In this document: one piece after another, positions 318 to 4,235 of the stretch
Layout: each line of letters begins with the position of its first letter
Position numbering within the stretch: position 1 is the stretch's first letter
Notes under the pieces: model-generated
What the model saw: only the letters and a program-made list of their open reading frames with translations
Told to the model about the DNA's origin: nothing
The model's database searches: none
Made by a program: the position numbers and the translations under genes
Assembly (NCBI GenBank): GCA_905235795.1
Contig: CAJOMS010000004.1
Span: forward strand, 1 to 35,089
From: an uncultured Clostridia bacterium
Lineage (GTDB): Bacteria > Bacillota > Clostridia > Christensenellales > Borkfalkiaceae
Length of the DNA: 35,089 bases
Direction: 5' to 3'

Positions 318-331
318 TTGCAAATTTATAA

Positions 332-358
332 GGTTCTACAATAAATGTTGGGGTATGA
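332..358 (+). repeat. left terminal inverted repeat of ISL3-like element
   Basis: GGTTCT(5 nt)AAATGTTGGGGTATGA, matched at the right end. Confidence 0.85.
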
Positions 359-467
359 GAAAAAACGTCTCAACATCTTTCGATTTTTGGACATAAAAAA
401 AGAGGCATAGTTTTGAATAACCTGTAAAAATGAATTTACCACAACACAATCTAAAGGATTCATTTCT

Positions 468-1200
468 ATGCCGTATTTAAATTATATATCAAAACTCTTA
501 GATTTGCAAGATGTTTCAGTCGATTTCGATATATTTCTGAAAATGATAAAGATATCATTATCCAGATATCAACAGAGAAGAAAGAACAAGTCTGCCCTTG
601 CTGCGGTAAAAAATCTTCTTACATTCACGATTACCGTTATCAGCATATAAGGGATCTGCCTTTCAGACGTAAACCTATCATTTTAAAGCTGAGAAAACGA
701 AGATATGTCTGCCCACATTGCGGGAAAAAGTTCTATAAACATCACGACTTCCTTCCTAGATGTTATCACTCGTCTAATCGTTTATTCGCTAATAACTTTT
801 AGATCTTAAAGATAAATCATCTTTTAAGGATATCGCCGAAAAAAACTTTGTTTACACCAATACCGTTTCGAGAGCATTAAATCTTGTCGGGTTCAGCGAT
901 AAACCGCCATTACCGGAAGTCCTCGGAATAGATGAATTCAAAGGAAATTGCGACGATCAGAAGCATCACATTCAAATCATCGATATTGCTAATCATAAGA
1001 CGTTAGCTATACTTTTATGCCGAAAAAAGTTGTTTTTGCATACATATTTCAGCAGATATTTAAGACAAGAAAGCCTTAACGTTAACTTACACAGAGGAAA
1101 AACATAACTTGATCAAGGTGTTGAGACGAACCGCATTTGGCTTCAGAAATTTCATCAATTTCAGAAAGCGAATTCTACTTTGCGCCTAACGAAAAGCTTG
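468..1200 (+). pseudogene. ISL3-family transposase remnant (frameshifted, core deleted)
   Basis: Frame-corrected reading gives MPYLNYISKLLDLQDVSVDFDIFLENDKDIIIQISTEKKEQVCPCCGKKSSYIHDYRYQHIRDLPFRRKPIILKLRKRRYVCPHCGKKF...DLKDKSSFKDIAEKNFVYTNTVSRALNLVGF...LGIDEFKG, then a C-terminal LRRTAFGFRNFINFRKRIL; typical ISL3 zinc-finger and DEFKG motifs, with much of the catalytic region missing. Confidence 0.85.
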
Positions 1201-1266
1201 CAGGCGATACCGCCTGCAAGCAAAATTTAAAATCATTTCGTTTCTTTCGCAAATTCTTTTTCAGGG

Positions 1267-1293
1267 TCATACCCCAACATTTGACAAAGAACC
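1267..1293 (-). repeat. right terminal inverted repeat of ISL3-like element
   Basis: TCATACCCCAACATTTGACAAAGAACC is the imperfect reverse complement of the left end. Confidence 0.85.
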
Positions 1294-1335
1294 TATATTT
1301 TTTGCTCTTTTTCGGTTTATCTCTTTTTTTATCAT

Positions 1336-1521
1336 TTACACACCTACGGGTGTTTCTTTAATTTTTCTCTTATCTAAATTATTCTCTTTGCATTTAGAAA
1401 AATTAATAGACTTTTCTCGCGTAGTTTTTTCACTCTCCCAAGAGCATCTAGTACACGTAACTCTACCATAATAAGCATTATATTCTGCTATAGCACCACA
1501 TTTAGGGCATATTATACACAT
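1336..1521 (-). CDS. 61-aa zinc-ribbon protein
   Basis: CPKCG...CTRC four-cysteine ribbon near the N-terminus; AAAGGAG RBS 7 nt before the ATG; 32 bp downstream of the deaminase on the same strand. Confidence 0.7.
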   Translation of the reverse strand: MCIICPKCGAIAEYNAYYGRVTCTRCSWESEKTTREKSINFSKCKENNLDKRKIKETPVGV

Positions 1522-1553
1522 TTGTTTGCTCCTTTTATATTTTAATTTTATTT

Positions 1554-2723
1554 TTATGCTTCATATTGGTAAAATCTAAAGAAAGCCCTAAAAGTAACAC
1601 CTTCAAAAGGAGTAGTTTCAACTTTTCCAATTTTTAAAATTTCCTTAGCTTCTTCTACCGGATATGGCTCAAAATAAATAACATGTTTTATACCAGCTTG
1701 CACTATTTTATTAGCACAAAGATTACAGGGATATGTTGTTACATATATACTCGAATCAGTAAGATCAATCCCTTTCCCAACTAAATTCATTATAGCGCTT
1801 TCCTCTCCATGAATAGCCCTACATAGTTCTAATAATTTGATTCTCTTTTTTATTATTGAGCCGCCATCTATTTTGTTTTTATATCCTAAATCATTACATA
1901 TATTTTGCGACAATTCATCTCGTTTAATATCACGATAACACCGTCCATGCTTTTTGTGGCACTCTTCTAAGCCATATGGCACTCCATTAAATCCTGAACT
2001 TATGATTCTATCGTATTTATCCGTTATTACTGCTCCAACCTTTCTTTTGAAACATCGAGAACGTCTTCCACTCACATAAGCAGCCGCCATAAGAGTTTCT
2101 TCAAGTTTAGGATTTGACTTAATAGGATTTTTTAAAGCGTTCAAATAAGCTTCAATTTTATAATCCATTTCTTGATAAGCTTTATTGGTGTTTTCCCCGC
2201 AATAAATATTCTCATTGTTAGATAAAATTAAATCAGCTTCAAAAAAACAGTCTGATATTTTTTGCCCATAATCAGGCTCAAAAGACCCTTTATCTTTTAT
2301 CTCGTCTAAATCAAACAAATCTTTCGAACCATGATAAGTGCTTTTTACTCGCTCCCATCTTATATTATAATCAGCGAAAATGCCTATTAAAATAAACTCA
2401 GAATATTTTTCTCTTAAAAATTTAATTTCAGCCGGATTGCGTATGCTCTCAATTACTATGTTTGCGTTTTCGTCTTCATTTTTTAAATAATTATCATAAA
2501 GCAGTTTTGCTAAGATAGCCTTATCTTCTTTGCGTAATTCATTTCCAAATTCTTGCAAATCATGTCGTTTGATTTGTTTTGACTTATTTTTTTCCTTATA
2601 TTTTTCTTTTAAAATTGTAGATAATGAAAATCTTTTATATCCTTTGTTTTCAAAAAAGTTTTCAGCGAGAAAACTTGTCCCGCTTCCAAATGCTCCAGTT
2701 AAACCGATAATTAATCTACTCAT
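1554..2723 (-). CDS. P-loop-fused deoxycytidylate deaminase (AvcD / antiphage dCTP-deaminase-like)
   Basis: N-terminal nucleotide-kinase-like domain (GLTGAFGSGTS...DLQEFGNELR...IVIESIRNPAEIKFLRE) fused to a C-terminal CMP/dCMP deaminase with HGEE and PCNLC zinc motifs; RBS-like AAGGGGATAAAAATG. Confidence 0.85.
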   Translation of the reverse strand: MSRLIIGLTGAFGSGTSFLAENFFENKGYKRFSLSTILKEKYKEKNKSKQIKRHDLQEFGNELRKEDKAILAKLLYDNYLKNEDENANIVIESIRNPAEIKFLREKYSEFILIGIFADYNIRWERVKSTYHGSKDLFDLDEIKDKGSFEPDYGQKISDCFFEADLILSNNENIYCGENTNKAYQEMDYKIEAYLNALKNPIKSNPKLEETLMAAAYVSGRRSRCFKRKVGAVITDKYDRIISSGFNGVPYGLEECHKKHGRCYRDIKRDELSQNICNDLGYKNKIDGGSIIKKRIKLLELCRAIHGEESAIMNLVGKGIDLTDSSIYVTTYPCNLCANKIVQAGIKHVIYFEPYPVEEAKEILKIGKVETTPFEGVTFRAFFRFYQYEA

Positions 2724-2756
2724 TTTTATCCCCTTGTATCTTCCCTCTACATTTAT

Positions 2757-2785
2757 ATGATAATATAATTTAAAAAATTTTACAA
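2757..2785 (-). promoter_or_regulatory. sigma70-type promoter of the deaminase gene
   Basis: TTGTAA-17 nt-TATCAT on the minus strand upstream of 2723. Confidence 0.5.
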
Positions 2786-3233: not shown

Positions 3234-3770
3234 TTGCTTCAACAACATTTAACGCGGTCTTCGGTTTTTACTATCACATCTTTCATGCAAAGAAAAAGTT
3301 GATGTGTTTCTTTTACAAAGTAACAAACGCCGTACAATTTATAAAACAACCTAAAAGTGGCAAAACAAATCATATTATTTTTGAATATTTTCAAACATAG
3401 ATTATCATATGACCTTTTAAAATGCTTAATGAAATGGATCGTTCTTTAAATTTCATTTTATCACAAATGGAAGATTTAGCAAAACAATTATCTGAATAGA
3501 TTAAGGTTACAGTTTTACAAATGAATGGTGTCGGAAGATAATTAAGTGCCTACTCATTGCCGAAATCGGCAACAATTCAAGATTCCAAAGAGACAAGTCT
3601 CTGATTGCTTATGCCGGAATATATTCTCCACCTCATAAATTTGATACGTTTAATGTAAAAAATCAACAAATATCTAAACTTAGATCAAAGTATATTCGTG
3701 ATATCGGCTATAAAGTATTGACTGTAATCAATATTAACAAAAATCCATATACTCCCCATAAAATCTAAAG
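3234..3770 (+). pseudogene. IS110-family transposase remnant
   Basis: Frame-corrected C-terminal reading NGVGR..LIAEIGNNSRFQRDKSLIAYAGIYSPPHKFDTFNVKNQQISKLRSKYIRDIGYKV matches the IS110/transposase_20 pattern; weaker N-terminal match NNI*RGLRFLLSHLSCKEKVDV; multiple stops and frameshifts. Confidence 0.7.
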
Positions 3771-3955: not shown

Positions 3956-4031
3956 TGGTGACCCCTACGAGAATCGAACTCGTGTTACCGCCGTGAAAGG
4001 GCGATGTCTTAGACCGCTTGACCAAGGGGCC
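3956..4031 (-). tRNA. tRNA-Glu(TTC)
   Basis: 76-nt cloverleaf, anticodon loop CTTTCAC, encoded CCA. Confidence 0.95.
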
Positions 4032-4047
4032 GTTCAAGTGGCGTAAA

Positions 4048-4124
4048 TGGTAGCGGCGGTCAGATTCGAACCAACGACCTGCCGGGTATGAACCGGCCGC
4101 TCTAACCAACTAAGCTACGCCGCC
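4048..4124 (-). tRNA. tRNA-Met(CAT), elongator type
   Basis: GGCGGCG acceptor stem, anticodon loop TTCATAC, encoded CCA. Confidence 0.9.
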
Positions 4125-4158
4125 ATATAGAGCCTTTACGATTTACTCGTCAAGGCAA

Positions 4159-4235
<77 letters not shown>

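What the first reader, a model, noticed from the sequence alone, without database searches (positions are those of the whole stretch)
1336..2785. Candidate nucleotide-depletion defence cassette: P-loop/deoxycytidylate deaminase fusion plus a zinc-ribbon partner
Sequence: a 389-aa protein fuses an N-terminal nucleotide-kinase-like domain to a C-terminal dCMP/dCTP-type deaminase with intact HGEE and PCNLC motifs. It has its own promoter and is followed after 32 bp by a 61-aa CPKC/CTRC zinc-ribbon gene with a good RBS. Knowledge: this architecture is that of AvcD (AvcID system) and antiphage dCTP deaminases, which deplete dC nucleotides during infection. Inference: both ORFs remain intact between two dead transposases, suggesting selection, and the zinc ribbon may be an unrecognised regulator, antitoxin or sensor. 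The known AvcI regulator is an RNA, so a protein partner would be a new variant.
Basis: partly seen in the sequence, partly recalled or inferred. Interest (0 to 1): 0.82.

Follow-up and report, generated by a model that had tools for sequence, protein, structure and literature searches.

The report
Two-gene anti-phage deaminase variant
A short, horizontally spread relative of the known bacterial enzymes that starve phages of DNA letter C travels, in nine of ten genomes examined, with a tiny zinc-ribbon protein gene that appears to be its undescribed partner.

Summary
A 389-aa P-loop plus dCMP/dCTP-type deaminase (2723-1554, minus) is followed after 32 bp by a 61-aa zinc-ribbon gene (1521-1336). 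The deaminase matches PADLOC's anti-phage dCTP-deaminase profile (E=3.9e-98) but falls below NCBI's cut-off for that equivalog (235 versus 400 bits): a divergent member.

Among about 1,040 Bacillota genomes, ten genera carry a compact (386-407 aa) deaminase of this subfamily. Nine have the ribbon gene directly downstream (23-bp overlap to 72-bp gap), in unrelated neighbourhoods and two or more classes. None of 15 long-form relatives has it. Compact forms lack the long forms' C-terminal extension and separate from them in the tree.

The cassette is rare (4 of 396 genomes in the order), AT-rich, lies between dead ISL3 and IS110 remnants beside tRNA genes, and is not the housekeeping deaminase. 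I found no paper describing a protein partner; AvcD's published regulator is an RNA.

Most likely this is a two-gene nucleotide-depletion defence module whose zinc ribbon controls the deaminase. Gene coupling is shown; phage defence and the direction of control are inferred. New variant of a known kind.

The parts
1554..2723 (-). Compact (389 aa) P-loop plus dCMP/dCTP-type deaminase, anti-phage dCTP-deaminase superfamily; HGEE and PCNLC intact, Walker A lysine replaced by Thr
   Evidence: PADLOC dCTPase E=3.9e-98 over residues 3-386; NF041025 235 bits, below cut-off 400; Pfam dCMP_cyt_deam_1 E=9.9e-19; nine compact proteins form one side of a branch against 15 long forms
1336..1521 (-). 61-aa CPKC/CTRC zinc-ribbon protein, coupled downstream partner
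   Evidence: Present in nine of ten compact loci; eight of nine recovered by leave-one-out profiles above every unlinked ribbon; four cysteines invariant
1522..1553 (-). 32-bp intergenic gap with AAAGGAG ribosome-binding site for the zinc-ribbon gene
   Evidence: in other loci the genes overlap by 4-23 bp or are 2-72 bp apart
331..1294 (.). Decayed ISL3-type insertion sequence, inverted ends 331-358 and 1267-1294; ends about 42 bp beyond the ribbon stop codon
   Evidence: inverted repeat I1; PF14690 Zn_ribbon_ISL3 E=8.6e-15 on 455-799
3505..3765 (+). Fragment of a dead IS110-type transposase upstream of the deaminase
   Evidence: PF02371 Transposase_20 E=6.5e-5
3956..4235 (-). tRNA-Glu, tRNA-Met, tRNA-Met: tRNA array beside tilS; the cassette lies on the 3' side of tRNA-Glu
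   Evidence: the tilS/tRNA-Met/tRNA-Met/tRNA-Glu order is kept in a relative (L081, G1044), where no cassette lies in the roughly 0.8 kb seen beyond the tRNAs

Best explanation
A horizontally acquired two-gene nucleotide-depletion defence module. The compact deaminase converts dCMP and/or dCTP to the uridine form during phage infection, cutting the dC pool (inferred from its superfamily). The small zinc-ribbon protein, made by coupled translation from the same message, binds the deaminase and keeps it off in healthy cells; it is lost, or senses the infected state, when phage shuts down host gene expression. It would thus do by protein what the AvcI RNA does for AvcD. Shown: the gene pair, its conservation as a unit, the superfamily, and the mobile context. 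Inferred: phage restriction, substrate, physical binding, and that the ribbon inhibits rather than activates.
For: PADLOC dCTPase match for all seven compact proteins scanned. Ribbon linked in nine of ten compact loci and 0 of 15 long forms (Fisher p=4.9e-6, ignoring relatedness). The reverse holds: a single-sequence search of 396 genomes found small ribbons only beside the deaminase, and a profile search of 388 genomes put the four linked ribbons at 67-83 bits and everything else at 29 or less, though the profile includes the linked ones. Flanking genes differ between loci, so the pair is the unit. Overlapping or closely spaced genes with ribosome-binding sites in all nine. dN 0.24 against saturated dS for the deaminase pair window/L016. 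GC 28-33% against 42-51% in neighbouring genes. Separate dCMP-deaminase-like genes exist in the same genome. AvcD is held off by a labile partner that is lost on host transcription shut-off (PMC10511110), a precedent for a controlling partner.
Against: No phage, enzyme or binding data. One compact locus (L017/G562) has no ribbon beside it and none elsewhere in that genome, so the ribbon is not strictly required. Antitoxins are more often encoded upstream than downstream. The cassettes are not in defence islands. A regulatory RNA was not excluded: upstream folds were unremarkable (z from -2.1 to +1.2), which is weak evidence.
Confidence: 0.42

Rival explanations
1. The zinc ribbon is a required subunit, not an inhibitor: it stands in for the C-terminal extension that the long-form deaminases carry and the compact forms lack, and is needed for folding, assembly, target recognition or activation.
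For: All nine full-length compact proteins end 0-8 residues after the shared domain, while all 15 long forms have 26-85 further residues. The ribbon gene sits where that extension would be and often overlaps the deaminase stop.
Against: The long-form extensions have no cysteine motif and no visible similarity to the ribbon. L017 has neither extension nor ribbon, yet an intact catalytic core.
Confidence: 0.3
2. The deaminase acts alone, as anti-phage dCTP deaminases are listed in defence catalogues; the ribbon is a loosely coupled factor, such as a nucleic-acid-binding autoregulator of the operon.
For: PADLOC and NCBIfam describe the deaminase by one model; zinc ribbons commonly bind nucleic acid (general knowledge); L017 lacks the ribbon.
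Against: Conservation of the pair across classes with the neighbours replaced and translational coupling point to tight functional dependence.
Confidence: 0.15
3. Not defence: an accessory dCMP deaminase that feeds dUMP/dTMP synthesis for the host or for a mobile element.
For: The deaminase domain resembles dCMP deaminases; deaminases of this kind are frequent in phages.
Against: Rare and scattered (4 of 396 in the order); the host already has dCMP-deaminase-like genes; architecture and best profile are those of the anti-phage family; only two of 1,386 matching phage records cover 80% of the protein, and the viral-contig scan gave deaminase-domain matches only.
Confidence: 0.1

Closest known systems
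Anti-phage dCTP deaminases / AvcD (AvcID system of Vibrio; NCBIfam NF041025, PADLOC dCTPase PDLC02373)
   Same: P-loop domain plus C-terminal dCMP/dCTP-type deaminase in the same order; HxE and PCxxC; lysine absent from the usual Walker A position in the members of both groups that were aligned; profile match E=3.9e-98; mobile context.
   Different: 386-407 aa instead of 497-755 aa; no N-terminal or C-terminal extension; NF041025 scores of 233-262 bits against a 400-bit cut-off; a coupled zinc-ribbon gene downstream; no upstream small ORF of the kind seen in several long forms. AvcD is controlled by the RNA AvcI (PMC10511110); no RNA was found here.
Housekeeping dCMP deaminase (ComEB type; human DCTD; Streptococcus mutans 2hvw)
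   Same: Deaminase domain fold and active-site motifs.
   Different: ComEB score 61 bits against a 219-bit cut-off; those proteins are about 140-190 aa and lack the P-loop half; the genome has other deaminase genes for that role.
Small zinc ribbons (archaeal TFS, TFIIB-like, Lar, ISL3 transposase ribbon)
   Same: Four-cysteine ribbon.
   Different: Only weak matches, none above a curated cut-off; the linked ribbons form their own profile group in leave-one-out tests for eight of nine.

Membership tests
Anti-phage dCTP deaminase / AvcD superfamily | P-loop domain fused to C-terminal dCMP/dCTP-type deaminase, full-length profile match | tested here: met
   PADLOC dCTPase 3.9e-98 over residues 3-386; all seven members of A3 match
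Anti-phage dCTP deaminase / AvcD superfamily | Catalytic HxE and PCxxC zinc site | tested here: met
   H305, E307, P332, C333 and C336 invariant in compact forms
NCBIfam NF041025 equivalog (named 'anti-phage dCTP deaminase') | Score at or above the curated cut-off of 400 bits | tested here: not met
   235 bits here, 233-262 in other compact forms; three AvcD-like long forms score 459-499
AvcID type III toxin-antitoxin | RNA antitoxin AvcI encoded beside avcD | tested here: inconclusive
   No Rfam match, no consistent structured upstream RNA, no upstream small ORF like that of long forms; absence cannot be proven from sequence
AvcID / dCTP deaminase defence | Deaminates dCMP/dCTP on infection and protects from phage | not testable with these tools
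   needs expression, phage challenge and dNTP measurement
Housekeeping dCMP deaminase (ComEB) | Equivalog-level ComEB match | tested here: not met
   TIGR02571 60.8 bits against cut-off 219.45
Toxin-antitoxin-like module with a protein partner | Conserved small coupled protein gene beside the effector | tested here: met
   nine of ten compact loci
Toxin-antitoxin-like module with a protein partner | Partner neutralises the effector by binding | not testable with these tools
   needs binding and toxicity assays

The most novel reading that the evidence does not exclude
The compact deaminases are a separate, protein-controlled branch of nucleotide-depletion immunity in Bacillota: the zinc ribbon is a sensor-inhibitor that reads host transcription or translation status and replaces AvcI RNA. 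More widely, each deaminase lineage may have recruited its own small regulator (a zinc ribbon downstream here; Trp-ending microproteins upstream in several long forms; 172-179-aa proteins downstream in two alphaproteobacterial ones).
Probability: 0.3. Interest if true: 0.78.

Novelty: new variant of a known kind. Interest (0 to 1): 0.58.

Why it matters
Nucleotide-depleting deaminases are toxic and must be controlled; the only controller described in the papers I could read is an RNA. A conserved protein partner in a separate branch would give a directly testable second control mechanism, and would mean that defence catalogues that list dCTP deaminase as a lone gene, or require long-form scores, misread or miss it. 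The pair is small (about 1.4 kb) and easy to move into a laboratory strain.

Tried and rejected
Upstream regulatory RNA: 120-nt upstream folds of the ten compact loci gave z from -2.1 to +1.2 with no shared element seen, and no Rfam family matched in the window besides tRNAs.

Ribbon as a leftover of the neighbouring ISL3 transposase ribbon: rejected, because the same ribbon lies beside the deaminase in other genera with quite different neighbours.

Integration at the tRNA-Glu 3' end: no second copy of the tRNA end in the window, and the contig begins at position 1, so the test is incomplete. tRNA genes lie near five of ten compact loci, but also near 4 of 25 unrelated loci: suggestive only.

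Selenocysteine at the in-frame TGA of L008 (at a position that is Cys in most relatives): no hairpin (z +0.85) and no selA found in that genome; more likely a nonsense change or sequencing error.

Viral source: the viral-contig scan gave only deaminase-domain matches; the ribbon has no match in plasmids, and a related ribbon none in phages.

Structure: models were modest (mean pLDDT 64 and 62). The fold search only confirmed a dCMP-deaminase-like domain and an adenylate-kinase-related domain. No complex could be modelled.

The two original 2022 Nature Microbiology papers on these deaminases were not held.

Full report
What is there. The large protein matches the PADLOC profile of anti-phage dCTP deaminases from residue 3 to 386 with E=3.9e-98. 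It also matches NCBI's anti-phage dCTP deaminase model, but at 235 bits against a curated cut-off of 400. The C-terminal half is a dCMP/dCTP-type deaminase (Pfam PF00383, E=9.9e-19; T4 and human dCMP deaminase are the nearest solved relatives) with the catalytic motifs intact. The N-terminal half is a P-loop domain without the Walker A lysine. None of the aligned superfamily members has a lysine at that position (some have one a residue later), so this is a family trait rather than decay.

Relatives. I searched 396 genomes of the order, 388 of the class, and 279 of the phylum, with overlaps, about 1,040 in all. Compact homologues of 386-407 aa turned up in ten genera: the window, L005/L007, L008, L009, L016, L017, L018, L019, L029 and L030. 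L008 carries an in-frame stop and L030 an N-gap. They are rare: 4 of 396 genomes in the order. Long-form relatives of 497-755 aa were collected from the same searches, plasmids and phage records. A maximum-likelihood tree puts nine compact and 15 long forms on opposite sides of one branch in all 200 bootstrap trees inspected; the printed support of that branch is 67/99 and the outgroup branches are very long, so the root is unsure.

The partner. In nine of the ten compact loci a small ribbon gene follows the deaminase directly: the window, L005, L008, L009, L016, L018, L019, L029 and L030. The spacing runs from a 23-bp overlap to a 72-bp gap, with 4-bp overlaps in three, and there is a purine-rich ribosome-binding site in each. 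Only the four cysteines and the start methionine are invariant in all nine, around a recurrent CPxCGxxAEYNxYFGxYxCxxCGW core. Profiles built without each member in turn still recover eight of nine above every unlinked ribbon seen. L030 is the exception, and its assignment rests on position and cysteines. The single compact locus without it, L017, has none elsewhere in its genome either.

Specificity of the link. None of 15 long-form loci has a ribbon motif within 500 bp downstream or 400 bp upstream. The 9/10 against 0/15 contrast has Fisher p=4.9e-6, although related sequences are not independent. In a scan of the same loci, 2 of about 139 other genes had a ribbon-like ORF in that place, one of them probably a chance ORF. 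In the reverse direction, the ribbon as a single query found small ribbons beside the deaminase in two other genomes of the order, and otherwise only two weak hits inside large multi-ribbon proteins. A profile search of 388 genomes of the class put four linked ribbons at 67-83 bits and everything else at 29 or less, with the caveat that the profile was built from the linked ones.

The unit. The neighbours differ between loci (an argB/argC region, a recN/argR region, PTS genes, fumarate hydratase and so on, read from the translations and not all confirmed by profile), so only the pair is conserved. That is the behaviour of a mobile two-gene cassette, mostly solitary and not within defence islands. 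In the window the pair has GC 28-33% against 42-51% in the adjacent genes, and lies between a decayed ISL3 element with recognisable inverted ends and an IS110-type remnant, on the 3' side of a tRNA-Glu/Met/Met array that is kept in a relative. Both genes are intact. Between window and L016 the deaminase has dN 0.24 with dS near 2.4 (saturated), and the ribbon core has dN 0.15 with dS not calculable, in keeping with purifying selection.

What the compact forms lack. All nine compact proteins read to their end stop 0-8 residues after the shared domain, while all 15 long forms continue for 26-85 residues; the compact forms also lack the N-terminal extension. The ribbon gene sits where the C-terminal extension would be. 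This suggests, without showing it, that the ribbon stands in for something supplied in cis elsewhere.

How it probably works. From the superfamily, the deaminase should convert dCMP/dCTP and deplete the dC pool in infected cells. For AvcD, an RNA (AvcI) inhibits the enzyme and disappears when phage stops host transcription (PMC10511110; review PMC12409362). Such an enzyme needs a controller. In this branch I found no upstream RNA or small upstream ORF, but a conserved, translation-coupled small protein. I therefore favour the ribbon as a protein controller (0.42), with an essential-subunit role close behind (0.30). The binding, the direction of control and the phage phenotype are all untested.

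Literature. Full-text searches for AvcD, dCTP deaminase, zinc ribbon and related terms found no report of a protein partner. The two 2022 discovery papers were not held, so novelty is relative to what could be read.

Verdict. It is a new variant of a known kind of defence, with an undescribed, conserved partner whose role is open.

Noticed in passing
L024:1039, L027:3890, L028:3905, L044:1887, L046:1893 (deaminase starts); the small ORF ends 11-74 bp upstream of each: Five long-form deaminases have an upstream 56-61-aa ORF with a similar basic C-terminus that always ends in Trp-stop (for example ...KVIAASKKITW*...NLKIAASKLDW*), where the AvcI RNA is reported in Vibrio. It may be a conserved microprotein.
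   Followed up: partly
L041:3533-4072 and L047:3232-3750: Two alphaproteobacterial long-form deaminases are followed by overlapping 179- and 172-aa ORFs sharing a (V/I)(L/I)DTR motif, with no Pfam match: possibly another lineage-specific partner.
   Followed up: partly
L008:1501-2610, in-frame TGA near 1546: A compact deaminase with an in-frame TGA at the P-loop position that is Cys in most relatives. No hairpin and no selA were found, so a nonsense change or sequencing error is likelier than recoding.
   Followed up: yes
Compact deaminases, residue 16 of the window protein: The Walker A lysine position is Cys in six of the eight compact proteins readable there in the alignment (Thr or Val in the other two): GLTGxFGSGC(S/T).
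   Followed up: no
L016:2945-3021, L017:2753-2826, L018:857-932, L019:1951-2027, window:3956-4235: Five of ten compact cassettes lie within about 1.3 kb of a tRNA gene; unrelated loci of similar size had one in 4 of 25, so this is suggestive only.
   Followed up: partly
L052 and L053: Two class genomes have a 108-128-aa double-ribbon protein near a tRNA-Met that is the nearest unlinked relative of the ribbon partner (up to 37 bits).
   Followed up: no
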